Virus record (IMG/VR): IMGVR_UViG_3300038429_000587
Coordinates: 1 to 64,000 of that record
Source of the DNA: a virus
Length of the DNA stretch: 64,000 nt
Direction: 5' to 3' (one strand)
Positions 16,158 to 59,228 of the stretch are shown here, piece by piece. Both the position numbers and the translations under genes were made by a program. The notes beneath the pieces are model-generated. The model saw only the letters and a program-made list of their open reading frames with translations, was not told where the DNA came from and did not search any database. Every line of letters begins with the position of its first letter. Position 1 is the first letter of the stretch.

Positions 16158-16191
16158 GGAAGTTTTAAGGGCGCTGCTGGGAGTAACTGTA

Positions 16192-17272: not shown

Positions 17273-17277
17273 TAACG

Positions 17278-17649: not shown

Positions 17650-17660
17650 GAGGAGAAGTT

Positions 17661-18513: not shown

Positions 18514-18515
18514 TC

Positions 18516-19922: not shown

Positions 19923-19934
19923 GAACGTCGAGAG

Positions 19935-21520: not shown

Positions 21521-21523
21521 CTT

Positions 21524-26124: not shown

Positions 26125-26212
26125 CGGCGGCAAAGCCACCGCAGCTGGAAGGTAGCGACGCTTCGCGTCCTAGCTAAAAGCAGCGACGCCTGCGGCGTCC
26201 GAGCTAAAAGAA
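26125..26212 (+). repeat. Dispersed hairpin repeat cluster 7
   Basis: Three hairpins in the AGCGA...AGC frame (GGCGGCAAAGCCACC is imperfect, GACGCTTCGCGTC and GACGCCTGCGGCGTC are good). It directly precedes the leftward CRISPR array A. Confidence 0.7.
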
Positions 26213-26221
26213 GATATTTCG

Positions 26222-26873
26222 CTAGTCTGCAAACTGAAGTGGCTGCGCGAAAACGGTGGCATCCTGTAGCCCTGCCTGTCTTCTCGGTTGCAACTCTGCT
26301 GTTTCTTATCTACAGCATTTTATTCCTCATACCTGCAACGGCATTATCGTCACAACTTATCGTAGCCTGCAATAATTATTTTTCTTCTCCAACCTGCAAC
26401 AAGTAATCAGTTCGCGTAATCCCGCATAACCTGCAATCTAGAAATACTTTTTGGGTTTCTCGCTAGTCTGCAACGTTCACCGCAATTCGCTTTAAATTGG
26501 CCAATCACGTTGCAACAAACCCATCGTCTCTCGCTAGTCTGCAATCCCGGAGGCGGAGATTGTCGCAGGACCGCCAGCGTTGCAACAAACCCATCGTCTC
26601 TCGCTAGTCTGCAACGCAAACGTGCGTGGATCGTTACGCAACCATCGGTCGCAACAAACCCATCGTCTCTCGCTAGTCTGCAACTTAGGCGTGTCCACAA
26701 CTTTACCTGCAACGTCGATAAGTCCTACCGCATATCCTGCAATCCTGCATCCTTGACTTCTAGAGTACGCTCCCCTGCAACTTCTCTATGTTTCAATACT
26801 TTCAAGGTACGTTCGCCTGCAACACACATTGAGCACCTATTCCCAACAGCTTACACATCGGCTTTCCTGCAAC
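26222..26873 (-). CRISPR. CRISPR array A (leftward), three full repeats amid minimal units
   Basis: Full 37-nt repeats lie at 26509-26545, 26579-26615 and 26648-26684 (minus-strand sense, beginning GTTGCAGACTAGCGAGAGA), identical or nearly so to repeats of array B. Spacers between them are 32-33 nt. On both sides are about eleven units that keep only GTTGCAG or GTTGCAGG (plus-strand CTGCAAC at 26333, 26394, 26468, 26707, 26775, 26817 and 26867; CTGCAAT at 26367, 26431 and 26737; CTGCAAA at 26227), plus one 32-nt type-B repeat at 26263-26294. Spacer-like gaps are 19-43 nt. The spacer 26546-26578 is an exact self-match to 29079-29111. Confidence 0.9.
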
Positions 26874-26987
26874 TGGTAAAGAAGATACATTTGCTTACAC
26901 GATACCATTTCCCGCTTGCAGCTGGAAGCGGTTTCGTTTAAACAGGAAGTGCGCGTCTTCACCCCTCCTTTTTCGGGAGGGTGTGTC

Positions 26988-28587: not shown

Positions 28588-30228
28588 ATGGCAGTCGAAA
28601 CACCCGAACTGCAGATGCCGGTCTTTCAACCGCAGCAGATGGCGGCTCCGCCGCAGCAGCCGACGCAGCCTTCGCAGACGCTGCCAACCTCTGCCGGTTA
28701 CGTCTCGAAAGCAGCTGCGGGCGCGTATGTGGCCAACAACCTTCTGCAAGGATGGCTGCGCGGGCGAGAGTATGCGCAACAGGCCAATATCTCCAAGGCA
28801 AAGCAACAACTCTCCGGCGCCGATTACACCTACCAGACGATGGCCAAGAACTACAACGACCTGCTGCGTAGCGGCAAAGCAGAGACCGATCCCTCCGTGC
28901 AGCAAGCCAAAGACGCTGCTTCGAGAGCTTGGCAGGCAAAGCTGAACGTGATGCAGCAATACGCCACTCCCGAGCAGCAGACAGGGCAGAAAAAAACAAC
29001 CGGGCAGAGAATTAAGGGAGGCTTGAGCAAGACTTTCGGGAAGGGAGGCCTGACGCCGGAGCTGATTCCGCAGGCCTCGCTGGCGGTCCTGCGACAATCT
29101 CCGCCTCCGGGATTGGGACTTACGGCGGAAGACAAGCTCACCCAGCAGCGAGTCGAACAGTCGCAGCTGGAAACGAAGGAAGCCGGTCTACGCGTCGAAA
29201 ACCTGCAGGCGCAGAGCGACACGCGCAAAGAGTACACCGGCTTGCTCAAGGCAGGCGAAAACATTACGCCTACGCAGAAGATGCAGCGCGACATCGACGA
29301 GCGGATTTTAGGCTTGTCGACCGAAGAGCAGCAGACGGCCCGCGACGTTCAGCGCAAGATTCTCACCGGGCAGATGTTGACCGATGGAGAACGCCAATTC
29401 GCCATCGGGAAAAAGATGATCGAAGGGCCGCAAACCGCCATCACCGAAGACGGATTGAAGCAATATATAACGCGCTACGATCCGAATACAGGGCAGGTTC
29501 TTTCGAAGACTTTGATCGGGAAGAAGTTTCACGAAAGCGCTGCCGCCGATGCGATCGCCGTGTTGCATGCGCAGCAGCAGGGAGCCTTCAGCATGTACAA
29601 GAAGGCGTTCCCAGATAAGCCCGACGAGGAGATATGGAAGTTAGTTTCCGCCGACTTCACCAAGAATCCGTATCTTACGTCGGAACTCTTAGGCGACAGC
29701 CCGCAGCAGGCGGCGAAAGATCAGTTTGCCGTCAGCAACGCGATCAAATCCGTGATGCAGGAGTTCGGCACAGGACCGGAGGGGCAGAAAGGCAAAGCAG
29801 AGTTCAGTAACTTTGTCGTTCCGCCGAAGGATAACGACCAGACCGGGCTGTATATGTTCAGTGGCCAGGTCGCCGATCCGAAAAGTTCGGGCATGCTTTG
29901 GTGGAAGAAGAACCTCTACGCTGGAGACCTGTCGAAAGAAGAGCTGGTCAGCAAGGCCTCGGCCTATCGCAACAGGTTGGCGGCGCAGCTGCAGAAACAG
30001 CGGAGAACTCCTTCCGATATCAATCGCATGCTGCAGCCTTTCGATCAGGAGATCCAGTCTCTGCGTGGGGGCGGGGCGCAGATGGCGACTCCTCCGAGCG
30101 GCGCTCAGCCCTATCGCATTACAGCGGGAGGCCAGAGCGTGACGCGCAACTTGACGAGCGATCAAGTCGAGGCGTTGCAGCAAGGCGGCGCCTCTGTGGA
30201 ACCGATGTCTATGGGTGCGCAGCCGTAG
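28588..30228 (+). CDS. Internal virion-like protein, target of a self-spacer
   Basis: A 546-residue hydrophilic protein with Gln/Ala-rich N-terminal helices (MAVETPELQMPVFQPQQM...), a coiled-coil centre and a Gly/Gln-rich end. It probably belongs to the ejected core proteins, given its place before the giant polyvalent gene. Bases 29078-29115 are a perfect match to a unit of CRISPR array A. No catalytic motif is visible. Confidence 0.55.
   Translation: MAVETPELQMPVFQPQQMAAPPQQPTQPSQTLPTSAGYVSKAAAGAYVANNLLQGWLRGREYAQQANISKAKQQLSGADYTYQTMAKNYNDLLRSGKAETDPSVQQAKDAASRAWQAKLNVMQQYATPEQQTGQKKTTGQRIKGGLSKTFGKGGLTPELIPQASLAVLRQSPPPGLGLTAEDKLTQQRVEQSQLETKEAGLRVENLQAQSDTRKEYTGLLKAGENITPTQKMQRDIDERILGLSTEEQQTARDVQRKILTGQMLTDGERQFAIGKKMIEGPQTAITEDGLKQYITRYDPNTGQVLSKTLIGKKFHESAAADAIAVLHAQQQGAFSMYKKAFPDKPDEEIWKLVSADFTKNPYLTSELLGDSPQQAAKDQFAVSNAIKSVMQEFGTGPEGQKGKAEFSNFVVPPKDNDQTGLYMFSGQVADPKSSGMLWWKKNLYAGDLSKEELVSKASAYRNRLAAQLQKQRRTPSDINRMLQPFDQEIQSLRGGGAQMATPPSGAQPYRITAGGQSVTRNLTSDQVEALQQGGASVEPMSMGAQP
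29078..29115 (+). other. Self-protospacer matching array A spacer
   Basis: These 38 bases are the exact reverse complement of 26542-26579. The core corresponds to the 33-nt spacer and the extra bases extend slightly into both flanking repeats. The 3' flank is GGACTTACGG beyond the identity, or ATTGGGAC counted from the spacer end. The guide has coding-strand sequence, so it would pair with the template strand. Confidence 0.95.
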
Positions 30229-30312
30229 GCGGCGCTCCGCGCCGTAGCTGGAGGGTAGCGACGCCTTCGGCGTCCGAGCAAGAGGCAGCGAGGGCTTCGC
30301 CCTCCTAGCAAG
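30229..30312 (+). repeat. Dispersed hairpin repeat cluster 8
   Basis: Three hairpins: GGCGCTCCGCGCC, GACGCCTTCGGCGTC and GAGGGCTTCGCCCTC. The last two are almost identical to cluster 1, including linker bases, which suggests recent copying between sites 25 kb apart. Confidence 0.8.
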
Positions 30313-39300: not shown

Positions 39301-39610
39301 TTATTTCGATACGCTGCTCTTCCCCAACAAGAACAAGCGGATTGCGCGTTATAGGGAAAAGCAGCTGATTCCGGATACGGTCGATTGGCTGATCGGTCCC
39401 TATTCCTCCATCACCCATACGATACAGACGGCCTTCAACGTAATTAGTGCGGCGACTATCGAAGAGGGCGATAAGAGATACCAGAAAGCAGCAAAGGCGA
39501 TTCTGGATTGGGGGAAGAAGGAGATACCGGCAGCGCGCCCAGCGTTAACCAGAATCGAACAGGAAGCCGGACTGCAGTCAGGATTTACCAAGTATCCGAT
39601 GGCGAGATAA
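30335..39610 (+). CDS. Giant polyvalent protein with protease and helicase domains
   Basis: A 3091-residue protein from a TTG start. Domains by motif: a DdrB/ParB-like region near residues 670-760 (LRAGQYDPGFLVSNDTAAQ then GRVMNGVRRLGML); a zinc metallopeptidase-like HEWFHAMH near 1222; an SF2/SNF2-type helicase with ATPTGTGKT near 1760, ADESD near 1850 and AVGRPWRYG near 2150; and a long helical region near 2680-2960 like the polyvalent-associated domain LPD38. Polyvalent proteins are thought to be ejected with phage DNA and protect it or reshape the host. Segment 33648-33692 contains hairpin-repeat DNA read as codons. Confidence 0.75.
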   Translation: MGTFRTIGDVDAFLNKTQKKAAPVAAASPARGAAPSMPEPAAVATGGPMDIGLVPKTEAAPKATIRSIADVDRYLTESQKGFGTQIKESLFGKKMEAPMAEPSIRAEDPGVVGRLWRDFMLAPTGTGKTLGEVKESIFNPVGRTNIQQQRVEDLQEKAYQQQYAGRGVAVRAAASLGTGVGRFVEGQTSPFQLALLFAGPAKAVAAEGAAGVFSPKLATLGKLAHFGFTSQMAMGAVDDSQQAVQEFRGGNWEKGIQLSVDGMVNALFAVSGTTHARAEETVRRSLESNSRQIYKSSWTKLTPEQKSNVVYEATRKMPFYRDLEKNVPSKKIYEQMAAANKAYSSYIEHAQEEGLRPPPGGEPEKLQELLLQKQASDADRATGNAFLGQKLDEEVARRAEEHRIELEKEHAAYKASEDAKREEEVRAKEEPPVTVVDRRSVSDAVSPQEREEVQASARHVLEEERARRMREKEEAGIGVTDRRSAAELNRTMQEEVEQRGKLETPAGQRYAAAHDRLTEMSEQIFPGAGPETVYERLRRKQREGFNLSREEEGFLGLHAQRETFERELLRDTKLRGATAADRQERNLDSLRTLAVNAERETDLQEASRTLRDQAGRAKSPDEADSLAKESLEAQEMAERLRTERSHEQIRRSLSAQPPEAGFEPLGAPVARLEGKNTWVDLPDGRALPAQYGAVRLSDLIRGEAETPKLRAGQYDPGFLVSNDTAAQYGPLTVLKDGRVMNGVRRLGMLEEALRGPDRDRILNEVEGQLWRFGIETGEGLDRSDPYVPVRILDAEPEDAQSVAILRSDLDRTTPIPEETELPSGVDKQKLPSGRIDTIVERLKEMPSGSTLGDLLSSREGHAILDEMVSEGVLDQHSAEEFLTESGELTEPGKSLLERIILGRAVDDQALLREMPQSVTDKLTYALPGLARLQEGPEDWQIGSHLKRALRDWAKIDPLRTALNEVGNPRDSIVDKFYRPHDYRLGGLIFQRRPAAPHPIREALARLFEQPHDRIETAFNDYADAMEARQDTHQSPNEAFNRQIGDRFEIEVLPQEWETAKPLPPSERAAIKEQEKPKPKVKPQTKEVAARKALVPPPPAPEPEAARPAVSERALRAPSEAQQDADRAVLESAIENGAVTPESLRKFFESDSRTKQHADLLMDIFSRVIPGAHNMSLEEYLADKISDFRRNPELAQKGATQFLDDGRVLIELGPKADVSTVLHEWFHAMHKYLSPEDRATIANFVGAEDPDLLSREHYEEAARAFEKYLASGKAPLEELETTFGKLKGIFRKIYEGIRNSPLSIRLSKEMRETFDRWFGLEAPAEEMQPLPEEKIKKPPNLREAEDLVWQKHEELEPQKDIPLSMFRLREASGLPEELFDEAIHSLRKQHRLFTTPYDKQEGAVYSPEHENNPMYGGAGWLIASTRRPEADWLPRSPEDLKEVSEKELAPPPESLTTITPEELEKSELKIKLNSTPLQERMAEARAKSFPDLDTAKAWMINNKGGLTVAEARQTPEGDVFVHFIPETPGTLFQEEPKSLGEMVRHVERLKKERERIGDPERRRILDREIGRWEGKIGTPEFGLFAPPTSEARIAPPPEDRPAEKPGQSLILFPEEISNESRRAADQRRAAVDDAARLQNAERAERLATGAERPQPIPADRPSLPGVSRPAAGTARVEERRNSFNRAGDVRVEPPQRLRTPAIVNSDQWRTRMIDLRMPEGLPAPSYKISDTTAALLSYPGQREIVESTMSTLQQFDGTVIATPTGTGKTFTALGVIKESFDPAKDRMLILTTSQEIIRQRNGWKDAGKRFFNLDVKDMPTDFTKAVEPGIYVTTYDTLMRRYNAGRYPWKMVIADESDEARNWWSSKTGRAVMRLSDASEKVVYLSATPFHLVQEYGYMTKLGLWKPNEFESFAKQFGARKTSDGRWIGGADPKQLIRLRKVMVERGQFVTMDKSYDGYSAQFAMVGLKESHVKDMRNAVQAFTEAERWFKMRGQSEKARAVRGVATTYLKNYLERSMLPQTIEMMKEARRQGWFPQLYVENLNERNDIYEFLEPVDKAMGGRLSQLLPPLPGVYEELVKAVGEEQIANFTGLDSPERRKALEDHNSGKKPFMLVTYGAGGRGVNTHDTSGVRPRMQFILGPPWSGMMLDQAVGRPWRYGTKSNVQAVFMATNAKPHVNMIAGKIAPRLESLRAAVSGVDGTDPLVRAMRDLRGAREELASFNLGGGQENKAQDFLQLDNRIPIKNYKEIKIDSAEGAKNKGMKYPGQVDDQPGVITLFQEEGKPKLPERFVSPEEAKAILMTREMMQSLADGENLPVAGEELNAITPGERKILADTVGPVVEASVEKPGEGDKSAIARQEAGNEITRILAAKRIGDVEATPQGWEMKVETPAAEAPKPEEGHVAPLYWMMSGRLNMERVTRQANVPEIGKELKRMHDDYLVRAHNYAGDFTHRFLQLMKESGVSLKGEEFRNFWLAKEGKAPPANARIAKAVEAATKLFEEAHREAAERGIYLKDWQDGKETKIYFEDFTAKPDYMPHRYSDTEKIRVTDPETGEKLTTTWGELTGGKIQEDRRKRIIAGLRKQSGMTAAQVEDWLQNRRRRVPLAGNIERARKADMPGYRMDAGAVLDYFHDLGEVLARQEVFGQDREKLDGVIARVPSAKGIQVLNTIFDGLLKPKPMDERTARWYSLIANTQVLSKMAFSAAKVPGHLALYPVVMEDFASLTRALFGFAFNFREMQERAIAAGALTEYAKSASMLEHSASLNLSSKFLGGVGFNWFYKMDRIVTNGAARSWMERYALPKLMENSKRSAHIRDQLRDKLMLSNEAIDAAIQRKRWTEQDLNRGSVAVTNRTLFTSSPAELPPNWRVRPDDPVAENMAQYLRVATILKGFTFKIANSIKENIIDEARKGNYRPIAYALVSFPAAAEAIKALSATAHTAVSAATGGGVAPAQKYLQDWEDLFDDPTVGKFIKRYVDDLGIGTAQEILSNYFDTLLFPNKNKRIARYREKQLIPDTVDWLIGPYSSITHTIQTAFNVISAATIEEGDKRYQKAAKAILDWGKKEIPAARPALTRIEQEAGLQSGFTKYPMAR
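33648..33692 (+). repeat. Hairpin-repeat element inside the giant gene
   Basis: Two AGCGA...AGCG units with GAGCGCTGCGCGCTC are embedded in frame in a linker of the polyvalent gene (residues about 1105-1120). This is the only clear case of the dispersed family inside a coding region. Confidence 0.65.
35184..35405 (+). CDS. Possible overprinted small gene inside the giant gene
   Basis: A 73-residue frame in +1 relative to the giant protein. It starts at ATG after GGAGGAGATC, a good ribosome site, and reads MNPDEQPTREEQQWMTLLGF with a balanced composition (several Trp, Leu, Tyr). In the main frame the same DNA makes an Arg/Ala/Glu/Pro-rich linker between protease and helicase parts. Either this is a real nested gene or chance; no homolog is recognised. 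Confidence 0.35.
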   Translation: MNPDEQPTREEQQWMTLLGFKTLKELNDWLQEPSDPNLYLRIGPAYPEFPALQQELRESRNEETASTGQETSE

Positions 39611-39818: not shown

Positions 39819-40479
39819 GTTGCAGGCTAGCGAGAGATGATGGGTTTGCTGTAACCATCGTTGCTGTTCAAGAGATCGAAAGCGATGTGTTGCAGGCTAG
39901 CGAGAGATGATGGGTTTGCTGTAACCCAATGTGAGTCGAAAGCTTCGAAAGGAATCCGGCGTTGCAGGCTAGCGAGAGATGATGGGTTTGCTGTAACACG
40001 GCAGTGATGTGTTCGCTCTGTGTAGCATATAGGTTGCAGGCTAGCGAGAGATGATGGGTTTGCTGTAACGCGCTGTCCGAAGCCACTGGTCTGCTTCGTG
40101 GGTTGCAGGCTAGCGAGAGATGATGGGTTTGCTGTAACCACGGGCTGCCGCCGAGTTCTACCAGCTTGCCAATGGTTGCAGACTAGCGAGAGATGATGGG
40201 TTTGCTGTAACTTCGACAGCTGGGTCGGCTCGCTCAGCGTTCAGGGTTGCAGACTAGCGAGAGGCGATGGGTTTGTTGCGACCCTGCTCTGAAGTGAGTC
40301 TGAGTGCCCATCTGTCATGTTGCAGACTAGCGAGAGGCGATGGGTTTGTTGCGACCCTGCTCTGAAGTGAGTCTGAGTGCCCATCTGTCATGTTGCAGAC
40401 TAGCGAGAGACGATGGGTTTGTTGCAACACGGGTCTTCACGTGAGCCTGAGTGTCCGGAAGCGTTGCAGATTAGCGAGA
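39819..40479 (+). CRISPR. CRISPR array B, nine full repeats plus a broken one
   Basis: Nine 37-nt repeats start at 39819, 39889, 39961, 40033, 40102, 40175, 40246, 40319 and 40392, each beginning GTTGCAG(G/A)CTAGCGAGAG. A tenth at 40463 keeps only its first 17 bases. Spacers are 32-36 nt. The first five repeats share GGCTAG and ...CTGTAAC ends; later ones drift to GACTAG and ...TTGCAAC, the form used in array A. Spacers 7 and 8 are identical and spacer 9 is a diverged relative. Repeat 5' ends pair with the tracrRNA anti-repeat at 41495-41509. Confidence 0.97.
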
Positions 40480-40723: not shown

Positions 40724-40740
40724 TACCACGCTCAACGTCC

Positions 40741-41246
40741 CTATGGCCCTGCCTTGTTCTCTCGCTAGCCTGCAACGAGATCGCGATAATCCGGTTCAAG
40801 AAATTCCCTGTAACCAGCCTGCTTTCTCGGTAGTCTGCAACTATCGGCCAGAGGTACCCTCCCGCTCGCTTCCTGTAGCCCATCTCGCTTTCTCGGTAGT
40901 CTGCAACAAATTGGCTCATATCTGACATACACGCGCCCCTGTAGCTCAGCCTGCCTTCTCGTTAGTCTGCAACTTGGAGATCGGGATTCCAAGTTCTTGA
41001 CATCCTGTAGCCCTGCTTTCTTGCTAGCCTGCAATACCGGCACGCCATCAAACTCCTGTAATCCTGCCTTCTCGGTAGTCTGCAACGGGAATGGTTTGCA
41101 TTTCTTAGCGCGTAGACTGCACCTTCTCGCTAGTCTGCAATTGAGTCTGGCCGCTAAACCTGTCTTTTTGCCAATCTGCAACCATCTGCCTCGTCGCCGT
41201 TAGCTTCGCGTCTGCAATCGAAGCAGTGCCCGAGCCAAGCTGCAAC
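40741..41246 (-). CRISPR. CRISPR array C (leftward), repeats shrinking from 36 to 7 nt
   Basis: In minus sense the repeats are of type B, beginning GTTGCAGACTACCGAGAAAG. Full 35-36 nt copies lie at 40741-40776, 40807-40841, 40872-40907 and 40938-40973, with exact 30-nt spacers. Then come 32-nt copies (41004-41035, 41055-41086), a roughly 31-nt copy (41111-41141) and finally bare 7-nt units at 41176, 41212 and 41240. Transcription would run leftward, so the most decayed units are the upstream ones. Confidence 0.9.
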
Positions 41247-41310
41247 CCATTCATCAACTCTTGCTCACAGCTGGTATCTCTCGTATTGCAGTCAATTTTA
41301 CAAACCATAG

Positions 41311-41350
41311 AACGAACTGTGTAAAAAAAACAACGAACTGTGTAAAAAAT
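41311..41350 (+). repeat. Tandem direct repeat upstream of tracrRNA A
   Basis: AACGAACTGTGTAAAAAA occurs at 41311 and again at 41332, a 21-bp period (two helical turns). It lies between leftward array C and the rightward tracrRNA promoter, so it may be an operator controlling either. Confidence 0.6.
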
Positions 41351-41354
41351 ATAC

Positions 41355-41383
41355 TTGACATGGAATCGAAGATTTGGGATTAT
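41355..41383 (+). promoter_or_regulatory. Promoter of tracrRNA candidate A
   Basis: TTGACA at 41355-41360, a 17-base spacer, and GATTAT at 41378-41383. Transcription should begin near 41390, just before the first anti-repeat-like sequence. It has the same layout as the promoter at 46365. Confidence 0.7.
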
Positions 41384-41389
41384 CAATCT

Positions 41390-41586
41390 CAGCTAGTCTG
41401 CAAACACGAACCGGGAGCACGGAAAGTGGATCTATCCGCGAGTCTCAGGGAAACACGAGATCTGAAAGCCAGTCTGCAAAAAGAGTAAAGCTATTCGCTA
41501 GTCGGCAACATGTATATTTTTATACGAACAGGCAATGCGCGTGCGCAACCTGAGAACGGCGTCCTTCGGGACGCCGTTCTGTTTGA
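41390..41586 (+). ncRNA. tracrRNA candidate A
   Basis: An RNA of about 195 nt is predicted from the promoter at 41355 to the terminator. The key part, TCGCTAGTCGGCAAC at 41495-41509, pairs with the first 15 bases of array A and B repeats with one A-G mismatch. Next come a GTATA/TATAC hairpin, a TGCGC/GCGCA hairpin and a 12-bp terminator stem with TTCG loop (41553-41580). Two further anti-repeat-like stretches (GCTAGTCTGCAAAC near 41392 and CAGTCTGCAAA near 41470) lie upstream. This is the expected tracrRNA architecture for type II systems. The 5' end is inferred. Confidence 0.8.
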
Positions 41587-41611
41587 AGGAGGGAACAGTG
41601 TCGGTGTAGAG

Positions 41612-41935
41612 ATTGCAGGCTAGAGAACGGCTTGGCATCTCAGGAAATAATTCGCGTTGCAGGCTAGGGATAAATCGAGTGTGCGTTATTGATGACGGTT
41701 GCAGGCTACCGAGAAAGCAGGCAGGGCTACAGGGACAAAACGTATTCTTCCGTGCAGTTTCTAGTTGCAGACTACCGAGCTAGAGTAAGAGTGAGTTGCA
41801 GGCGTAGCTTTTTGATTCCGTATTGCAGACGAGCGGCGTACTTATGATCCTGGGTTGCAGACGCATAGATATTGTGGAACGCGGTATGGATCGGGTTGCA
41901 GACTTCGGTTGGTAGATGTTGCAGGCAGGCGCTTT
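41612..41935 (+). CRISPR. Minimal-unit cluster after tracrRNA A
   Basis: Rightward units start at 41612, 41656, 41698, 41764, 41795, 41822, 41854, 41895 and 41918. Only 41698 carries a full 36-nt type-B repeat; the others keep GTTGCAG plus at most GCTA or ACTACCGAG. Gaps between units are about 15-35 nt. It ends before the hairpin that holds the ribosome site of the 42017 gene. Confidence 0.75.
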
Positions 41936-42016
41936 CCTATTGAAAAATCGGGCTAAATCGGGCTAAATATCCATAGCGCGCTTTCACCCCTCTTCACTCG
42001 TAAGAGGGGAGCGCGA

Positions 42017-42244
42017 ATGCAAGCAATTTGGAATTTCATTCTTTCCCATCAAACAGCGATTTCTGTGGCTTTGTACTGGATTTGTGCGGGATCGGTGCGT
42101 TCGATGCCGGAACCCGCCGCCAATGGCAGTAAGTTCTATGCGTGGTTTTACGGCACAGTGCATTTCCTGGCCGCAAACTTCGACAAGATCGGCGTGGCCA
42201 AGGCCGCTATCGTGACGCCGAAGGCTTCCAGTGCCAGCGTTTAA
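42017..42244 (+). CDS. Small membrane protein, holin-like
   Basis: A 75-residue protein (MQAIWNFILSHQTAISVALY...) with one or two hydrophobic segments and the phage-typical stretch SMPEPAANGSKFYAWFYG. Similar short membrane proteins are common in phages and are sometimes called holins without proof. Its GAGGGG ribosome site pairs with CCCCTCTT in a hairpin at 41987-42009, so translation may be controlled. Confidence 0.55.
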   Translation: MQAIWNFILSHQTAISVALYWICAGSVRSMPEPAANGSKFYAWFYGTVHFLAANFDKIGVAKAAIVTPKASSASV

Positions 42245-42331
42245 GAAGTCACTGCTCGTTTGGCGGATTCCCTATCGCTCCAGGCTTTGTCTCCCGGTAG
42301 CAACCGTATCCCTACCCAAAGGAGCGGAATA

Positions 42332-42496
42332 ATGCCTGGATTTGAAAGCAAAAAGCAATGGAAGAAGTTCTTCGTCATGGAAAAACGCGGCGAACTCCCA
42401 AAAGGAGAAGCAAGAAAACGCGCCCATGAATCGAAAAGCTACCGCAGCCTGCCAACCAAGATAGGAAAACGAAAGAAACACAGCAGAAGCTACTAG
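42332..42496 (+). CDS. Small basic protein
   Basis: A 54-residue Lys/Arg-rich protein (MPGFESKKQWKKFFVMEKRG...) after an AAAGGAG site. The KQWKKFF...GEARKRAHESKSY pattern recurs in small phage proteins of unknown role. A terminator follows at 42518. Confidence 0.55.
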   Translation: MPGFESKKQWKKFFVMEKRGELPKGEARKRAHESKSYRSLPTKIGKRKKHSRSY

Positions 42497-42517
42497 ACAA
42501 ATCGGTGTAACAAACAA

Positions 42518-42546
42518 ACGGCCAGTGGAAACATTGGCCGTTTTAC
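42518..42546 (+). terminator. Intrinsic terminator
   Basis: Stem ACGGCCAGTG with CATTGGCCGT, GAAA loop, then TTTT. It closes the two small genes before array D. Confidence 0.8.
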
Positions 42547-42578
42547 GTTAACATCGTTTGGTCTAAAGAGGCAGAACG

Positions 42579-43079
42579 GTTGCAGGCTATGATGATTGTC
42601 ATTTGGTGTTGCAGACAGCGAGAAAGTAAGCATGCGATACAGAATAGACTGACATCACGATATGCCAACAGAAATAGCAGGCTAGCGAGAGGAAGTAGGA
42701 CTACAGGAAATGCGCCATTTGTAGAGTTTGCAGGCTACCGAGAAGCCATGGCTACAGGACTCAGCAAGAATTGCAAGCATAAATTTGCGTTGCAGACTAT
42801 TGGGAAAGCAGGCAAGCCATAGGGCGTTGCACGGGAAATGAGGCGTTGCAAGATTAGCGAGAAAGCAGACTGGGCTACAGGTTCGTAACCTAATATAACT
42901 TTGCTTGCACAGTTGCAGACTACCGAGAAAGCAGGCAGGGCTACAGGTTCGTAACCTAATATAACTTTGCTTGCACAGTTGCAGACTACCGAGAAAGCAG
43001 GCAGGGCTACAGGTTTGTTCCTGTCGCATGAACATATCTAATCGTTGCAGACTACCGAGAAAGCAGGCAGGGCTACAGG
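42579..43079 (+). CRISPR. CRISPR array D (type-B repeats) next to the cas9 3' end
   Basis: Perfect 36-nt repeats beginning GTTGCAGACTACCGAGAAAG lie at 42912-42947, 42978-43013 and 43044-43079, with 30-nt spacers. A 37-nt variant is at 42845. The spacers 42882-42911 and 42948-42977 are identical. To the left the units decay (42579, 42608, about 42674, 42726, 42789 and 42826). The last repeat ends 23 bases from the cas9 stop, and the array points into cas9 antisense. Confidence 0.93.
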
Positions 43080-43102
43080 AGGAATCTTGTAGCCCATTGA
43101 TT

Positions 43103-46100
43103 TTATTGGTGAGTAGCGACCTTCCGAGGCTGGAAAAGATCGATCTTGCCACCATTTGGATGGAGTTCTCCAAGTAAATCCACCTTGACCGGCGCCATGC
43201 CCATCTTGCGCAGGGCATCGACTTTCGGGGACCACCCTTCATGGGCTTTGTCGAGTTCGACAGCAGACCGGGTTTCATTGAGCGGCATGACGGTGACTTG
43301 TCCATTTGCCGCGATGCCGCGAATGCGATAGATGCCTGGGATGCAGACATCGTTTTCGTGCTCGCAATCGCGGTGTAACAAGATTAAGTCGCCGATCATA
43401 AGAGCGCACACAAACAGATGCTTATATTTGGCCCCTTTGGGCAGGCGGCCGGAGACGCCGTTGAGCGAAGTCAACCGTTCGTCGATCACCGGCTGCTTTC
43501 GATTACAGCGGGTTTTTGCTTCCAGCAGGGAAACGGTGCGGCTGACATAGCGTGGACCATTGGCATCGTCGATTTCGAAGACCTCCATGTGGTGATTGCG
43601 ATCATTGGCGACGTAGCGCTCGAAGCCTTCTTTGCCTACCTTGGTGACGGTAAGAGCCTTCCGGATGCGGGCGCGCCGGATAGGGACGGCAGGCCTTTTC
43701 CCGACCTGGATCGTCGGCCAGTTATTCGCAGCGGCGCAGGTAGAGAGATCCTCTTCCAGCGCGAGGAAATGGCGCAACACGGCCTCCCGAACGGGCTTGG
43801 AGACGATAGCTTCGATATCGCGTTTGCTCATGGCCGTGACCGGCTTACGGACGGTGACCCAGGAGCGGCCCTGCTCGTCGATCACCGGCTTGGAGTAATG
43901 CGTCTCCTGGTGTAAGGCTCCGTTGAGCTTCTTCTCGACCCGGATGGAAGGGACGATGCTATCGACTTGGGAGCGGATCGAGTCAATAAAATCCGGCCAA
44001 GGGGATTCGATGGCATTCGAATCCTTGCTATAGCGAGTCATGCGATGAAAGATCTCGTCGTCCAGGCAGGCGATAGCGATGGGATCGAGCGTCTGGGCGC
44101 GCCAGTCGTCGGGGAGTTCCCGGTAAAGGTCACTCAGCGCCCACTTGCGGCGCACCAAGGCTGTCAATGCGGAAGGGCGCCCACAAACGGCACGCCGCGT
44201 TACGCCTTGAGGGAGAAGAACGTCGCGCCCACCATAGAGCGTGCCGACTAACTCCATGGCCCACTTGGTGGCGAAGCGATTGTCGTTCATGGCGCGTTGC
44301 GTGTAGATCTCCAAGTCTTCGCGGGAGCGGACTTCGAAGCGATGCAATTTCTCGATGGCGAGGTCGCCTTTGAAGAGATCGACGCGGCGGAGGATGTCGT
44401 CGAAGAGGTCTTCGTTTTTCCCGTAGGCCTCATAGGGCGTGAAGTTACGCTTGACCGAGGCTAATTCCGGCGCGTAGATGAGCGTCTTATTCGAGAAGGA
44501 ATTGTCGGGATGGCGGTTGAAGGGAAGGATATTGGTCACCATCCAGTCGTCGCCGCGAAAGAGAGCATCGAAGGGGATCTTGTGGCCGGTATAAGGGCAA
44601 AAGCCATCGCACTCGTCCCATAATTGGACTTTTTCGATATCCGATCCGCTGACATTTTGTTTGGCGATGCCGGTAGCTTCGCTGACGCGCTCGCGCAGCT
44701 TGTCGCGGCTAGCCTCTCTCTGCTTATTGCCGATATGGATATTCTGACGTTCTTTCCGGCTGCGCCGCAGTTCGTTACCGAGTTCTATATGGATGCGATA
44801 CGGCTTGCCATAGCGGCGAACCAGGGCGTTGACAATTTTGCGGGTCTGCGTAAGGGAGCGTTCGACGGCAGGATTCGCCAGAGCGCGGAAGACCTCGCGA
44901 ACGGGAGGGATTTCTTCGTGGATCGGCTTGAAATGTACTCCCTCGCCGTACTCTCGTTCGACGGCCGTAGTGTAGCCGATGCCTTCGTTGAGGTGAGGCA
45001 TTAAGCGGGCGATCGCCTTCTTCGACAGAGAACAATAGCCCGATTCCGGCAACTCGCTGGCCCAGAGTTTTCCCTGCTCTTCGGTTAACAGATAGTGGCG
45101 CATGCCAGCGGTGACGAGCTGTTTTTCGGTTTCGGCGGCATTCCAGATATTGATGGTTTCCGCCTGTTGTTCGGGAGTCATCTTGAGCCATGCATCGCCG
45201 AAGACCTTGTAATGGTGGGCATAAGTGCGATTTCCGAGGATCTGTTTTTCTCCGGCGCGCTGGAAATTGAACTCCGAGGATTTCGGGAAGCCGAAGTGCT
45301 TTTTGACGGCGGTATAGGTGAGCTGGGGATTGACCTCCAGCAGCCGATAGAGGGCCTCTTTCTCCTCTTTGGTCAAGGGAGAGCCTTCGGCTTGGCCGAT
45401 GGGGCAAATACGCAGATCGTTGATGCGTTGCCGCATACGGAAACGCTGAGCCTCCATGCTGCACATCGGAGCGCGGCGTTGCTTAGGCTCGAACTCGCAG
45501 AAGCCGACGAGATGCTTTGCAGAGGCCAGCGGACGCTGGAAGAAGAGCAGCCGGTGAATCTGGCTTTTCAGCTGCGGGGTTAGCAAGTCTGGGTAATACT
45601 TGTGCTGTTTGGTCCAGATCTGCTCGAATTCGTCGAGATACATCTGACGCGAGGTCCAGCGGCGGCGGATCTTCACCTTTTGGGGATCGATTTTGGAGAA
45701 GTATTCGCCTAAGGTGCGAGCTTTCAGCTTCTGCATCTCCTGGGCGAGTTCGGAGATCCCTTGCTTGACGGCTCCCTCTTGGCCTTCTTTCTCCGGTTTG
45801 CGCCGGTTGGACTGATATCCGCGACGCTGCACAAGGTGATAGAAGATCCGGCCCAGCTCGAAGAGCTTGAGGCGGCGATCCAAGGCATCGGCGCGCAGGA
45901 TATAGGGCAGCTTGTTGTGAGGATGGCGATCCGCCAGAGCCTTTTCTAGCTCGCGCTCCAAATTATTCAACGTGTCGAGACGCTGTTTGGGGCTGCCATT
46001 GGTGCTGGCAGGCAAAAGTCCCTGCATCTGCAGCAAGGCGAAGAGCTCGGTTTCCCGCTCCAAGCGGCGCTCGCGTATCCGTTGCGACTGTTTTACCTGA

Positions 46101-46306
46101 CGGTAGGCGACGGCGCGGGAGATATCCTTCCCTCGCTTGATTTCAAGCAAGGAACCCTCGACGCCGGGATCGAAGAGATGCACGCCGGGGTGCATCAAGG
46201 CGACAGGATTCTTATCGTCCTTGTCCGATAACTGGACAGCAGCCCACCCGATAGAGGACGCATTGATCTGTAACCCTAAAACGTAATCTTTATGTTTGGC
46301 GACCAT
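43103..46306 (-). CDS. cas9: Cas9-like protein, both nuclease sites predicted inactive
   Basis: An intact 1067-residue type II-C-sized Cas9. RuvC-I reads LGLQINASSIGWA, so the catalytic Asp is Gln13 and the next Gly is Asn15. An Arg-rich bridge helix follows at about 64-85. RuvC-II keeps Glu508 (IHIELGNEL). The HNH domain (about 560-625) keeps CPYTG and Asn606, but the Asp-His pair is Thr591-Asn592 (MVTNILPFN). RuvC-III reads RAQTLDPIAIAC: the His pair is Ala737-Gln738, with Asp741 kept. The protein should bind guide RNA and DNA but not cut. No cas1, cas2 or csn2 is present. The start is the first in-frame ATG; ribosome site is weak. Confidence 0.95.
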   Translation of the reverse strand: MVAKHKDYVLGLQINASSIGWAAVQLSDKDDKNPVALMHPGVHLFDPGVEGSLLEIKRGKDISRAVAYRQVKQSQRIRERRLERETELFALLQMQGLLPASTNGSPKQRLDTLNNLERELEKALADRHPHNKLPYILRADALDRRLKLFELGRIFYHLVQRRGYQSNRRKPEKEGQEGAVKQGISELAQEMQKLKARTLGEYFSKIDPQKVKIRRRWTSRQMYLDEFEQIWTKQHKYYPDLLTPQLKSQIHRLLFFQRPLASAKHLVGFCEFEPKQRRAPMCSMEAQRFRMRQRINDLRICPIGQAEGSPLTKEEKEALYRLLEVNPQLTYTAVKKHFGFPKSSEFNFQRAGEKQILGNRTYAHHYKVFGDAWLKMTPEQQAETINIWNAAETEKQLVTAGMRHYLLTEEQGKLWASELPESGYCSLSKKAIARLMPHLNEGIGYTTAVEREYGEGVHFKPIHEEIPPVREVFRALANPAVERSLTQTRKIVNALVRRYGKPYRIHIELGNELRRSRKERQNIHIGNKQREASRDKLRERVSEATGIAKQNVSGSDIEKVQLWDECDGFCPYTGHKIPFDALFRGDDWMVTNILPFNRHPDNSFSNKTLIYAPELASVKRNFTPYEAYGKNEDLFDDILRRVDLFKGDLAIEKLHRFEVRSREDLEIYTQRAMNDNRFATKWAMELVGTLYGGRDVLLPQGVTRRAVCGRPSALTALVRRKWALSDLYRELPDDWRAQTLDPIAIACLDDEIFHRMTRYSKDSNAIESPWPDFIDSIRSQVDSIVPSIRVEKKLNGALHQETHYSKPVIDEQGRSWVTVRKPVTAMSKRDIEAIVSKPVREAVLRHFLALEEDLSTCAAANNWPTIQVGKRPAVPIRRARIRKALTVTKVGKEGFERYVANDRNHHMEVFEIDDANGPRYVSRTVSLLEAKTRCNRKQPVIDERLTSLNGVSGRLPKGAKYKHLFVCALMIGDLILLHRDCEHENDVCIPGIYRIRGIAANGQVTVMPLNETRSAVELDKAHEGWSPKVDALRKMGMAPVKVDLLGELHPNGGKIDLFQPRKVATHQ

Positions 46307-46399: not shown

Positions 46400-46595
46400 C
46401 GTAGAGTTTTGGTCGACCCTGCAACCGGCCAGGATTGTACGTTGTAAGAATAAAGAAAGAGTTAGAAGCCAAAAACGGTCAACCTGCAACATGTGACGGA
46501 ATTTCCATTACCGGCAACATGTATATTTTTATACGAACAGGCAATGCGCGTGCGCAACCTGAGAACGGCGTCCTTCGGGACGCCGCTCTGTTTTT
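46400..46595 (+). ncRNA. tracrRNA candidate B (second copy)
   Basis: Bases 46512-46593 repeat 41503-41584 with one change (T to C in the terminator stem). The shared part has the GGCAAC end of the anti-repeat, the two small hairpins and the terminator stem; here the T run is better (GTTTTT). The longer anti-repeat is missing: upstream are ACCGGCAAC and earlier AACCTGCAAC (46481-46490) and CCCTGCAAC. These would pair only with the first 7-8 bases of a repeat, exactly what the minimal units keep. Copy B may therefore serve the minimal units. Confidence 0.65.
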
Positions 46596-46618
46596 ATGAA
46601 GAACGGAAGGTTTTATCT

Positions 46619-47205: not shown

Positions 47206-47429
47206 GTTGCAGGTTGAGAACAACAAAGACTGGACTATGTTGCAGGATTAAGGAAGTGGAGGTGTTGCGGGCTAAAAAGAAGAAGAGCTGGACTCTGTTG
47301 CAGGCACGGGAGTGTTCGTTGCAGGCGTACGATCACCGGATTGCAGGTTATGGTGGAACGTGTGGTGTGTTGCAGGCGGGAGTCCGATAATCGGACTTTC
47401 CCGTTTCGTCGTCATTAGAAGGTTGCAGG
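47206..47429 (+). CRISPR. Minimal-unit cluster E
   Basis: Eight units with GTTGCAGG or a one-base variant at 47206, 47239, 47264, 47297, 47318, 47340, 47369 and 47422. No base beyond GTTGCAGG is conserved. Periods are 33, 25, 33, 21, 22, 29 and 53 bp. One gap contains the palindrome AGTCCGATAATCGGACT (47381-47397). The stretch has no credible gene. Confidence 0.6.
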
Positions 47430-48140: not shown

Positions 48141-48262
48141 GTTGCAGGAGCATTACATTGCATAATTACGGTTGCAGGGACGAAGATGTAGATAGTTGCA
48201 AAGGCGCGGTCCGGAACGGGTTGCAGGCTATCGGTTGTGAGGATTGAATTGTGCGTTGCAGG
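48141..48262 (+). CRISPR. Minimal-unit cluster F
   Basis: Five units beginning GTTGCAGG, GTTGCAGGG, GTTGCAAAGG, GTTGCAGG and GTTGCAGG at 48141, 48171, 48195, 48220 and 48255 (periods 30, 24, 25, 35). The cluster stands about 50 bases upstream of the 48312 gene and could also act as a set of binding sites. Confidence 0.5.
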
Positions 48263-48311: not shown

Positions 48312-49079
48312 ATGGCGAAACTTCACGAGTTACTTGCCGTCGAAAGCAACCTGAAGGGACAGGCGGAAAAGCTCCGCCAGGATCTGATGGGAACCTTCGA
48401 AAAGAAGCGGCACCTCTTCGAGGAAACGCGGAAGACATACACGGCAAAGGAAGAAAACAGCAAAACGGTTGTCGAAGAACAGAAAGAGATTCAGACTACG
48501 GTTGCGAACGAGATCGCGTGGATCTCGACACACATGGCGAAGGCCATCGACGCCGGTTACCACATCGACACAGCCAACACGCAGGCCTTTGCCGATGTGG
48601 TGATCGAAGACGAGGAAACGGCGATCCTGAAACAGGTCCCTGCAACGGCGCTCCTACAGCTGGAAAAGCGGCTGAAGGACGTTCAGGCGCTGATCCAGGC
48701 GATTCCTACTCTCGATCCGGCCAAGGGCTTTCAGCTGGACACGGAGCATGCTAAGAAGGGTGTTTACAAGGCTCGCGATGTGGTCAAACCGCGCACGAAG
48801 AAGGAGCCAAAGGTCATCACGCTAGCTCCGGCCACCGATAAATTCCAGGCGCAAACGCAATTGCTGAGCGTCGATGAACCGGTGGGCGAGATTCGCGAGC
48901 AGGAGTGGAGCGCCATGTTGACGCCTTCGACAAAAACGGAGCTGTTGGATCGTGTGGAGAAGACCATCCGCTCCGTCACTCGCGCCAGGGCGCGGGCCAA
49001 CGAGCAGGAAGTCGACGTGCATGGCAATAAGGTTGGCAAGAAGCTGCTGGATTACATCTTCCAGCCCCTGCAGTCCTAA
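48312..49079 (+). CDS. DUF7873-like conserved phage protein
   Basis: A 255-residue protein. MAKLHELLAVESNLKGQAEK at the start, KKRHLFEETRKT and PATALLQLEKRLKDVQALI in the middle match a common actinophage and podovirus family that I recall as DUF7873. It is helical, and the role is unknown. Start supported by GAAGGGA upstream. Confidence 0.65.
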   Translation: MAKLHELLAVESNLKGQAEKLRQDLMGTFEKKRHLFEETRKTYTAKEENSKTVVEEQKEIQTTVANEIAWISTHMAKAIDAGYHIDTANTQAFADVVIEDEETAILKQVPATALLQLEKRLKDVQALIQAIPTLDPAKGFQLDTEHAKKGVYKARDVVKPRTKKEPKVITLAPATDKFQAQTQLLSVDEPVGEIREQEWSAMLTPSTKTELLDRVEKTIRSVTRARARANEQEVDVHGNKVGKKLLDYIFQPLQS

Positions 49080-49466: not shown

Positions 49467-49575
49467 GGGAACATTCCAAAACGCGGTCGCCGGTTCAAAT
49501 CCGGTCGAGGCCCCCATAAAAATTATGGCCTCGTAGCTTAGCGGTAGAGCAGCGTGATCAGGATCAAATGTTCTC
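49467..49575 (+). tRNA. Circularly permuted tRNA candidate
   Basis: The 3' half precedes the 5' half. The 3' half has AACGC (49480-49484), variable GGTC, T arm GCCGG-TTCAAAT-CCGGT (49489-49505), acceptor CGAGGCC (49506-49512), a C and an encoded CCA (49514-49516). After a 10-nt linker the 5' half has GGCCTCG (49527-49533, perfect complement of the acceptor), TA, D arm GCTT-AGCGGTA-GAGC and GCGTG (49552-49556), pairing 4 of 5 with AACGC. The outer ends (49467-49475 and 49567-49575) are also complementary over 9 bp. If the anticodon loop is ATTCCAA, the anticodon is UCC (Gly); this is uncertain. Confidence 0.65.
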
Positions 49576-49610: not shown

Positions 49611-49683
49611 TTCGATCTAGCTCAGTTGGTAGAGCATCACACTTCTAATGTGAGGGTCGCCGGTTCGAATCCGGCTATCGAGC
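49611..49683 (+). tRNA. tRNA-Arg (UCU)
   Basis: Cloverleaf by eye: acceptor TTCGATC with TATCGAG (one mismatch, one G-T), D arm GCTCAGTTGGTAGAGC, anticodon stem TCACA/TGTGA with loop CTTCTAA, and T arm GCCGG-TTCGAAT-CCGGC. The anticodon TCT reads AGA. No CCA is encoded. It is 36 bases downstream of the permuted tRNA, and a terminator follows. Confidence 0.85.
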
Positions 49684-50495: not shown

Positions 50496-50614
50496 GTTGC
50501 AGGATACATGGAACTAGAGATGTTGCAGGCTTTGCCGCCGATGTTCGGTGTTGCAGGTTTTGTGCCAGTTGCAGGTGGATGTAGTCGAAGTCAGAGTTAA
50601 GTCAAGGTTGCAGG
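50496..50614 (+). CRISPR. Minimal-unit cluster G
   Basis: Five GTTGCAGG units at 50496, 50522, 50550, 50568 and 50607, with periods 26, 28, 18 and 39. The last unit is 12 bases before the ATG of the VWA gene. No full repeat is present. Confidence 0.5.
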
Positions 50615-51274: not shown

Positions 51275-51603
51275 GTTGCAGGTGAGCATGGTCAGTTTTC
51301 CAGTTGCAGGCAAATGCGGCTAAACTTCCATCGATAGATGTTGCAGATGAAAAGGCTATAGTTGTTACAGGCGAATGCAGTCGATCTCGCCGTGTTGCAG
51401 GTTTTACGGAAGTAGAATATCAAGCTGCAGGCGGAAGAGCTTCTCTTGCAGGTTTCGGAGATCATGATTTGTTGCGGGTCCGGCTTCATGAAAACTGCAG
51501 ACTAACGTGGCCGTATATTTGTGTTGCAGACCGGTGGTATACAGCAGAGTTGCAGGTGAGCGTCATGTGTTGCAGGCCGGTGCATGTCTGGAATAGTTGC
51601 AGA
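51275..51603 (+). CRISPR. Minimal-unit cluster H
   Basis: Thirteen units at 51275, 51303, 51340, 51364, 51394, 51424, 51445, 51471, 51495, 51523, 51549, 51569 and 51596, most with GTTGCAGG or a one-base variant. The last extends to GTTGCAGACTAGC. Periods are 20-37 bp. It fills the convergent gap between the VWA gene and the regulator gene and contains no credible gene. Confidence 0.6.
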
Positions 51604-52206
51604 CTAGCTTTGGGATCGTTTGGCAAGTTCGTAGCGATCCCAGAAATCTCGTAGCATTTTGGAGCGTTGCGGCTCGGGTTGTCGAAAGATTCGCCGCAAC
51701 GCTCCTTCCATTTCGCGATCTTCTTCGCTTTCCAAGAGCGAATCGGAGTCCGATTCCTGGACTTTTTCGAGGGTCCACTCGACGATCCGGTGAAGTGGAA
51801 CTCCAGCTTCTTTGGCCTTCTGTTTGCGCCGGAGAAAGCGGCGCAACTCCAAGACGCTAAAGAGCTGAAACTTGCCGAACTTTCTGGGCTTCACGATTCC
51901 GCGATGGATCATGACGTAGAGATGGTTGGAAGTAATTTCCGCGATCTCGCAGAACTCCGATGTGGAAAGCAAAGGAATATCGATCAGATTTTCTCTGCGT
52001 TTCCCGGAGAGCAGCAGCTCCTGAACCTCAAGGGCCTGCTTATAACGGGGGCTTGGATCGAGATATCTCCAATCGGATTCGAGACAGGATTTTCTGCCGA
52101 AACAAATACCGGCCAGCTTGCCTGCTTTAATCAGCTTTTTAACTTTTGGGGCGGAAAGATGCAACTCCATGCATAATTCCGGGAAGGTAAGCCATCGTTC
52201 TTGCAT
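51604..52206 (-). CDS. Helix-turn-helix regulator
   Basis: A 200-residue protein from the ATG at 52206 (a start 13 codons upstream is possible). Two MerR/excisionase-like helix-turn-helix segments are visible: LTFPELCMELHLSAPKVKKL near the start and LSTSEFCEIAEITSNHLYVM near residue 80. The C-terminus is charged. It is transcribed away from the recombination operon and faces an inverted repeat at 52228-52244, so it probably regulates both directions. Confidence 0.65.
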   Translation of the reverse strand: MQERWLTFPELCMELHLSAPKVKKLIKAGKLAGICFGRKSCLESDWRYLDPSPRYKQALEVQELLLSGKRRENLIDIPLLSTSEFCEIAEITSNHLYVMIHRGIVKPRKFGKFQLFSVLELRRFLRRKQKAKEAGVPLHRIVEWTLEKVQESDSDSLLESEEDREMEGALRRIFRQPEPQRSKMLRDFWDRYELAKRSQS

Positions 52207-52227
52207 GCGGAAAATATAACTCAATCC

Positions 52228-52260
52228 TGCCTTGACACGAGGCAAGATTGGCTTATAAAT
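52228..52260 (+). promoter_or_regulatory. Early promoter with overlapping operator
   Basis: TTGACA at 52232-52237 and TATAAA at 52254-52259 (16-base spacer) form a strong promoter toward the bet operon. The inverted repeat TGCCTTGACACGAGGCA (52228-52244) covers the -35, a classic position for a repressor site. Confidence 0.65.
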
Positions 52261-59015: not shown

Positions 59016-59228
59016 ATGGCGACTAAGAAACCGAGTCAAGGTACACTTAAAGGCGTTGCGACGGTACTACTGGAAATCGGCGCGCAGAGAACAGAACAAC
59101 TTCGCCAAATAAGAGTTCTGCTGCAAGAGAGTAAAGATGTTGAAGCTCTCGACGCCATGCGGGAATACCTCGCGATGAATCCAGCAACAAGGAACCCAAG
59201 GGATGAAAACGAAAGACAAGCAAGCTGA
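59016..59228 (+). CDS. Small hypothetical protein
   Basis: A 70-residue helical protein (MATKKPSQGTLKGVATVLLE...). It overlaps the recombinase start by 26 bases. No family is recognised. Confidence 0.45.
   Translation: MATKKPSQGTLKGVATVLLEIGAQRTEQLRQIRVLLQESKDVEALDAMREYLAMNPATRNPRDENERQAS

What the first reader, a model, noticed from the sequence alone, without database searches (positions are those of the whole stretch)
43103..46306. Natural phage Cas9 with both nuclease centres mutated
Sequence: a 1067-residue frame with no stop or frameshift. RuvC-I Asp is Gln13, the RuvC-III His pair is Ala737-Gln738, and the HNH Asp-His pair is Thr591-Asn592. Glu508, Asp741 and Asn606 remain. Asp to Gln (CAG) and Asp to Thr (ACC) each need at least two base changes, so sequencing error is unlikely. 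Known: loss of the RuvC-I Asp and HNH His abolishes cutting in studied Cas9s. Inference: the protein is kept for RNA-guided binding, not cleavage.
Basis: partly seen in the sequence, partly recalled or inferred. Interest (0 to 1): 0.97.

Follow-up and report, generated by a model that had tools for sequence, protein, structure and literature searches.

The report
Naturally dead Cas9 in soil phage
A soil phage of about 96 kb carries a full-length Cas9 that has lost both DNA-cutting centres but keeps its guide-RNA parts and several CRISPR arrays, one spacer of which matches the phage itself and others host-lineage DNA, so it looks like a naturally occurring RNA-guided DNA-binding (silencing) protein rather than a cutter.

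Summary
Confirmed, and stronger than first described. The minus-strand ORF 46306-43103 is a full-length type II-C Cas9 (1067 aa; TIGR01865, 535 bits). Against active acidobacterial relatives at up to 44% identity, the RuvC centre lost D10 and H983 (Q13, Q738; E508 and D741 kept). The HNH centre lost all three ligands: E/D839 to T591, H840 to N592, N863 to L615.
It is not a pseudogene. No stop in 1067 codons; 123 of 157 family-invariant residues kept, although its branch is about 8 times longer than its sister's.
The phage (about 96 kb from two overlapping contigs, no Cas1 found) has its own RNA parts: two copies of a well-folding tracrRNA, four CRISPR arrays, and many dispersed 7-8-nt repeat stubs.
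One spacer matches the phage's own genome perfectly (38 nt). One matches host-lineage hemE. One matches (33/34) an E2/ThiF-JAB gene on an acidobacterial conjugative element.
Best reading: a natural dCas9 used for RNA-guided binding or silencing. The known phage 'II-C2' Cas9 (dead RuvC, active HNH, no arrays, proposed anti-CRISPR) is the closest precedent and differs on defining points. No cutting or binding assay exists.

The parts
43103..46306 (-). Type II-C Cas9, 1067 aa, both nuclease centres lost (Q13; T591-N592-L615; A737-Q738), E508 and D741 kept
   Evidence: TIGR01865 535 bits; alignment to relatives; codons
41486..41588 (+). tracrRNA copy 1: anti-repeat TTCGCTAGTCGGCAAC pairing with the full repeats, three hairpins, terminator-like stem; extended -10 promoter-like site at 41355-41383
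   Evidence: fold z -4.1; duplex with repeat folds z -8.3; promoter scan (chance level overall)
46480..46597 (+). tracrRNA copy 2: same 82-nt core (99%), different 5' part; pairs only with GUUGC.GG, i.e. the stub repeat; intrinsic terminator CGGCGTCCTTCGGGACGCCG-CTCTGTTTTT
   Evidence: repeat D12, fold z -3.2, terminator
39819..40479 (+). CRISPR array 1: nine 37-nt repeats GTTGCAGGCTAGCGAGAGATGATGGGTTTGCTGTAAC (degenerating to the right) plus a tenth partial copy, spacers 32-36 nt
40212..40245 (+). spacer matching hemE (uroporphyrinogen decarboxylase) of Acidobacteriota, in codon frame (FDSWVGSLSVQ)
   Evidence: 26-30 of 34 nt in many genomes
40429..40462 (+). spacer matching 33/34 nt of a Prok-E2_E gene beside ThiF/JAB and TrwC relaxase genes in an Acidobacteriota contig
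   Evidence: E 1.3e-8, context
40283..40391 (+). duplicated spacer (40283-40318 and 40356-40391) that resembles the Prok-E2_E spacer (15 of 17 nt, VSLS codons), possibly same gene family
40740..41250 (-). CRISPR array 2: 36-nt repeats GTTGCAGACTACCGAGAAAGCAGGCAGGGCTACAGG-like, 66-nt period, decaying to stubs towards tracrRNA 1
41607..43080 (+). CRISPR array 3: stubs, then 36-nt repeats (42912, 42978, 43044) with 30-nt spacers, ending just before the cas9 stop codon
26330..26880 (-). CRISPR array 4: three full 37-nt repeats flanked on both sides by stub repeats
26546..26578 (-). self-targeting spacer GCTGGCGGTCCTGCGACAATCTCCGCCTCCGGG
   Evidence: 38-nt perfect match to 29078-29115
29079..29111 (+). 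the protospacer, inside ORF 28588-30228 (546 aa, virion-gene region, no family match); 3' flank ATTGGGACTT
47206..47428 (+). stub array: GTTGCAGG every ~20-58 nt, intergenic
48141..48261 (+). stub array upstream of ORF 48312-49079
50496..50613 (+). stub array upstream of the vWA-domain gene (start 50626)
51275..51602 (+). stub array, intergenic

Best explanation
A temperate-looking, ~96-kb phage of soil Acidobacteriota took a type II-C cas9 from that bacterial lineage. The protein then lost both nuclease centres, while guide binding and DNA recognition were kept. With the phage's own tracrRNA and crRNAs it binds matching DNA without cutting and acts as an RNA-guided roadblock or repressor on competing mobile elements and host DNA. 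It tolerates self-matching spacers because it cannot cut. Shown from sequence: dead centres, constrained ORF, tracrRNA and array complementarity, the spacer matches. Inferred: expression, guide loading, DNA binding, repression as the useful output, and spacer acquisition by a host Cas1-Cas2 in trans.
For: RuvC D10 and H983 and the whole HNH triad replaced; all 11 full-length relatives intact. No stop in 1067 codons; in a neutral simulation, losing 6 of 8 given codons without any stop occurred 0 times. Differences from its sister are concentrated in variable columns: 62% against 22% in invariant ones, p = 3e-21. tracrRNA:repeat duplex folds with z = -8.3. Own arrays with 66-nt period, the same geometry as bacterial relatives. 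38-nt self-match, hemE match, 33/34 match to a conjugative-element gene. Precedent for non-cutting interference: type V-M Cas12m and type IV-A (PMC11656645; PMC12669027) and a phage 'dCas14' with a host-gene spacer (PMC7162821).
Against: All identified protospacers are on the coding strand, so the crRNA would pair with the template strand, the weak orientation for elongation block by SpCas9 (own knowledge). No common 3' motif (PAM) is visible in the three protospacer flanks. Three invariant bridge-helix arginines are changed (R68Y, R72K, R75Q), which could weaken guide binding. The P0001 branch is about 8 times longer than its sister's (1.62 against 0.19), as relaxed selection would also give. 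Only one phage species carries it, so no dN/dS could be computed. No expression data.
Confidence: 0.6

Rival explanations
1. Decoy anti-CRISPR (like the phage II-C2 Cas9): the dead Cas9 with a strong tracrRNA sequesters host crRNAs or competes with the host Cas9, protecting the phage from a type II-C host system.
For: A precedent exists in phages (PMC10910872; PMC12669027). About 10% of sampled Acidobacteriota genomes encode related Cas9s (38 of 399). Two tracrRNA copies would suit titration.
Against: The phage has its own arrays and repeats, unlike II-C2. The repeats of four bacterial relatives (e.g. GCTAGGGATGGCCGGGATTCACCGCTCAAGTACACT) have no similarity to the phage repeat or tracrRNA. HNH is dead too, whereas it is kept in II-C2.
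Confidence: 0.2
2. A decaying system: an ordinary phage CRISPR-Cas9 recently inactivated, perhaps by selection against self-cutting, and on its way out; the degenerate arrays and stubs are debris.
For: Long branch, lost arginines, degenerate repeats and stubs, a self-spacer.
Against: Six catalytic residues replaced by about eleven base changes with no stop in 3.2 kb is not reached under neutrality. Strong constraint at invariant columns, including 47/53 in REC and 17/21 in WED/PI. Stubs keep exactly the first 7-8 nt of the repeat, not random positions.
Confidence: 0.15
3. Dead Cas9 acts only as an adaptation factor: it loads or selects spacers for a host Cas1-Cas2 (dead Cas9 is known to lose self/non-self discrimination), and the spacers serve the host's or no Cas9.
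For: Mixed spacer targets (self, host-lineage gene, mobile element) are what acquisition without discrimination should give.
Against: No Cas1 in either contig. Repeats differ from those of relatives, so host Cas1-Cas2 compatibility is unproven.
Confidence: 0.05

Closest known systems
Type II-C2 variant: phage Cas9 with inactivated RuvC (Altae-Tran 2023, PMC10910872; 2025 classification, PMC12669027)
   Same: Phage-encoded type II-C Cas9, RuvC centre inactivated, tracrRNA nearby, no Cas1 found
   Different: Here HNH is dead too, CRISPR arrays are present, two tracrRNAs, anti-repeat matches the phage's own repeats and not those of bacterial relatives; no SNF2 helicase gene found in the proteins scanned (a ResIII/AAA_34 helicase domain sits in the neighbouring 3091-aa protein)
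Bacterial type II-C Cas9 of Acidobacteriota (e.g. L131, 44% identity; L019, 40%)
   Same: Domain order, length, 36-nt repeat/30-nt spacer geometry
   Different: Relatives have all catalytic residues and unrelated repeats; two of the contigs (L019, L020) have Cas1-like and Cas2-like ORFs downstream of cas9 (judged by eye, no family search)
Type V-M (Cas12m) and phage 'dCas14'
   Same: Works-like: natural RNA-guided binding without cleavage by loss of nuclease residues, on mobile elements
   Different: Unrelated effector (Cas12 kind); here Cas9 with two separate nuclease domains lost
Francisella novicida Cas9-scaRNA
   Same: Natural Cas9 used for repression (own knowledge)
   Different: That Cas9 keeps its nuclease residues and uses a partial guide; here the protein itself is dead

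Membership tests
Type II CRISPR-Cas (Cas9) | Full-length Cas9 with RuvC I-III, bridge helix, REC, HNH, PI | tested here: met
   TIGR01865 535 bits over 8-980; alignment over 6-1055; Foldseek best match Nme1Cas9 E 1.8e-36, though model confidence is low
Type II CRISPR-Cas (Cas9) | tracrRNA with anti-repeat | tested here: met
   (by sequence and fold; expression not tested)
Type II CRISPR-Cas (Cas9) | Catalytic RuvC and HNH residues (active nuclease) | tested here: not met
   6 of 8 invariant catalytic positions replaced
Type II-C | Cas9 groups with II-C Cas9s | tested here: met
   best solved relatives are NmeCas9 and other II-C; inside the acidobacterial clade in the tree
Type II-C | cas1-cas2 in the locus | tested here: not met
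   no PF01867 in G000 or G001; Cas2 not searched
Variant II-C2 (phage RuvC-dead Cas9) | RuvC inactivated | tested here: met
   Q13, Q738
Variant II-C2 (phage RuvC-dead Cas9) | HNH active | tested here: not met
   T591, N592, L615
Variant II-C2 (phage RuvC-dead Cas9) | No associated CRISPR array | tested here: not met
   four arrays
Variant II-C2 (phage RuvC-dead Cas9) | Associated SNF2 helicase | tested here: inconclusive
   not seen in the scanned proteins; ResIII/AAA_34 helicase domain in 30335-39607; not every gene was scanned
Variant II-C2 (phage RuvC-dead Cas9) | tracrRNA anti-repeat matches host repeats | tested here: inconclusive
   no match to repeats of four bacterial relatives; the true host is unknown

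The most novel reading that the evidence does not exclude
The phage runs a two-tier natural dCas9 guide system. Ordinary crRNAs from full repeats pair with tracrRNA 1. In addition, dispersed intergenic 'stub' arrays, in which the repeat has shrunk to GTTGCAGG and spacers are about 15-30 nt, are read with tracrRNA 2, whose anti-repeat fits only the stub. This would give many mini-guides embedded in phage transcripts for programmed, cleavage-free gene control.
Probability: 0.12. Interest if true: 0.95.

Novelty: new variant of a known kind. Interest (0 to 1): 0.82.

Why it matters
Nuclease-dead Cas9 is best known as a laboratory invention. The natural phage cases found in the papers read here keep HNH and lack arrays (II-C2), or are Cas12-type effectors. 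A phage Cas9 with both centres lost, its own guides and a self-matching spacer would show that evolution made a dCas9, and makes testable whether phages use cleavage-free CRISPR silencing against competitors, host genes or themselves. It may also offer a ready-made compact dCas9.

Tried and rejected
Close relatives for dN/dS: none in IMG/VR beyond identical contigs, so only distant comparison was possible. Other viral Cas9s: of seven found, the five whose ORFs were read keep their HNH and RuvC-III motifs, and RuvC-I where the contig covers it. AlphaFold model too weak to judge metal geometry (pLDDT 63.6, pTM 0.31). Self-targets for other guides, including stubs: none above chance in about 96 kb. 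Apparent hits of spacer 5 and of the self spacer in Acidobacteriota genomes: different genes or frames, taken as chance. Two spacers scanned exactly in IMG/VR: only the phage itself or nothing. Array searches in phage and plasmid records: nothing convincing. Sequencing or assembly error: rejected (second contig identical, multi-base codon changes). Neutral pseudogene: rejected. A 5' TC dinucleotide shared by the three protospacer flanks was seen, but n = 3 and on the wrong side for a Cas9 PAM, so not claimed. One early script read multi-record files as one sequence; its output was discarded and the work redone.

Full report
OBSERVATION. The frame 43103-46306 is real but lies on the minus strand. 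It encodes 1067 residues without stop or frameshift and matches TIGR01865 (Cas9) with 535 bits over residues 8-980. The closest solved structures by sequence are NmeCas9 chains. The same DNA occurs in a second IMG/VR contig (3300018057_000010, 79,137 bp), identical over window 40034-64000. That contig also overlaps window 14100-22876, so the two contigs together imply a circularly permuted or circular genome of about 96 kb (inference from the overlaps). The same terminase-like protein, 100% identical, is in contigs from two further samples.

ACTIVE SITES. Aligned with acidobacterial and other II-C Cas9s, every relative that covers the site has Asp (RuvC-I), Glu (RuvC-II), Glu-His...Asn (HNH; Asp-His in the more distant L004 and NmeCas9) and His-His...Asp (RuvC-III). 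The phage has Gln13, Glu508, Thr591-Asn592...Leu615, and Ala737-Gln738...Asp741. Codons are CAG, GAA, ACC, AAT, TTA, GCC, CAG, GAT. The third HNH metal ligand (SpCas9 N863 / NmeCas9 N611) is Leu615. So the HNH triad is wholly lost, and RuvC lost two of four residues. Loss of RuvC D10 or of HNH H840 alone inactivates that centre in studied Cas9s (established knowledge).

NOT A PSEUDOGENE. The phage protein is the sister of the Cas9 of genome G371 (44% identity, support 85/93), but its branch is 1.62 against 0.19 changes per column, so it has evolved fast. The changes are not random. At the 157 columns invariant in 11 relatives it differs in 34 (22%); at variable columns it differs from its sister in 62% (Fisher p 3e-21). 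The catalytic positions are lost far more often (6 of 8) than other invariant positions (28 of 149; p 0.0014). In a generic neutral simulation no run lost six of eight given codons and stayed free of stops. REC (47/53) and WED/PI (17/21) invariant columns are well kept; L2/RuvC-III (16/25) is not. Three invariant bridge-helix arginines are changed, a caution for guide binding. The AlphaFold model has low confidence and only supports overall Cas9 resemblance.

RNA PARTS. An 82-nt sequence is present twice, 99% identical, at 41503-41584 and 46512-46593, both plus strand. Each folds as a type II tracrRNA: anti-repeat, hairpins, G+C-rich terminal stem. Copy 1 carries TTCGCTAGTCGGCAAC, which pairs with the first 16 nt of the CRISPR repeats (duplex z -8.3). 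Copy 2 carries a different 5' part that pairs only with GUUGC.GG. Four CRISPR arrays are present. Arrays 1 and 4 use a 37-nt repeat and arrays 2 and 3 a 36-nt repeat; both repeat types share the 5' end GTTGCAG[AG]CTA[GC]CGAGA that pairs with tracrRNA 1. The 36-nt/66-nt geometry equals that of the bacterial relatives, but the relatives' repeats are unrelated in sequence. No Cas1 was found in either contig.

STUBS. GTTGCAG occurs 79 times in the window against 7.5 expected. After removal of full repeats, about 50 sites remain in which only [G/A]TTGCAG[G/A], plus a faint CTAG, is conserved. They are spaced mostly 20-60 nt and clustered in intergenic regions; one more cluster lies in G001 near 44.1-44.4 kb. 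Their function is unknown. Copy-2 tracrRNA is the only visible partner that fits a stub (inference).

SPACER TARGETS. (a) The array-4 spacer 26578-26546 matches the phage's own genome over 38 nt at 29078-29115, inside a virion-region ORF of unknown family. No other guide matches the ~96 kb above chance. (b) The array-1 spacer 40212-40245 matches hemE in many Acidobacteriota genomes, 25-30 of 34 nt at the loci read out, in codon frame. (c) The array-1 spacer 40429-40462 matches 33/34 nt (E 1.3e-8) of a Prok-E2_E gene followed by a ThiF/JAB gene and a TrwC relaxase, i.e. a conjugative element, in one Acidobacteriota genome. A neighbouring duplicated spacer resembles it. Self, host-lineage and mobile-element targets together are what one expects of a system that does not kill its bearer. 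A missing PAM could also explain tolerance of the self-match, and no common PAM was found.

MECHANISM. Best supported: a natural dCas9 with its own guides, binding without cutting and most plausibly silencing (0.6). Against easy acceptance: all matched protospacers are on the coding strand, the weak orientation for SpCas9-type elongation block, and nothing is known of expression. Rivals are a decoy anti-CRISPR as proposed for II-C2 (0.2), late decay (0.15), and an adaptation-only role (0.05).

WHAT IS KNOWN. Altae-Tran et al. 2023 (PMC10910872) described phage II-C Cas9s with dead RuvC, active HNH, an SNF2 helicase, a tracrRNA and no arrays, proposed to sequester host crRNAs; the 2025 classification names them II-C2 (PMC12669027). 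Al-Shayeb et al. 2020 (PMC7162821) reported that most phage effectors keep catalytic residues, and one 'dCas14' with a host-gene spacer. Type V-M and IV-A silence without cutting. The present case fails the II-C2 definition on HNH activity and on lack of arrays, so it is reported as a new variant of type II-C, working like V-M, not as a member of II-C2. Only an open-access library was searched.

Noticed in passing
window 26330-26880, 41240-43080, 47206-47428, 48141-48261, 50496-50613, 51275-51602; G001 44126-44412 (L015 4126-4412): Dispersed 'stub' repeats GTTGCAG(G), the first 7-8 nt of the CRISPR repeat, 79 in the window against 7.5 expected including full repeats, in intergenic clusters with irregular 20-60 nt spacing.
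   Followed up: partly
window 46480-46530: Upstream of tracrRNA 2 the 12-mer CC[TG]GCAACATGT is tandemly repeated; the first copy is perfectly complementary to the stub GTTGCAGG.
   Followed up: partly
window 5078-5165, 8049-8155, 17175-17282, 26121-26208, 30229-30309: A different family of ~80-110 bp intergenic repeats (80-94% identical), not CRISPR; possibly promoter or terminator units.
   Followed up: no
window 30335-39610: A 3091-aa polyvalent phage protein with a ResIII/AAA_34-type helicase domain directly beside the CRISPR region.
   Followed up: partly
window 49485-49504 and 49611-49683: A tRNA gene with a second copy of its T-arm 20-mer 170 bp upstream; with a large serine recombinase at 59203-60948 and an excisionase-like HTH_17 gene at 51604-52245 this hints at a temperate phage.
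   Followed up: no
L054 5190-6200, L022 1-260: Acidobacterial cas9 genes whose N-terminal region contains in-frame tandem repeats (ASDAADANLRLEIGKGGAESGSLR); L054 lacks most of the nuclease region.
   Followed up: no
L014 14605-16194 (G001 about 34.6-36.2 kb): An intact IS66-family transposase gene in the part of the phage outside the window.
   Followed up: no
L108 1-5885: Acidobacteriota conjugative-element contig with a Prok-E2_E plus ThiF/JAB operon, a ubiquitin-like conjugation module of the kind linked to defence, targeted by a phage spacer.
   Followed up: partly
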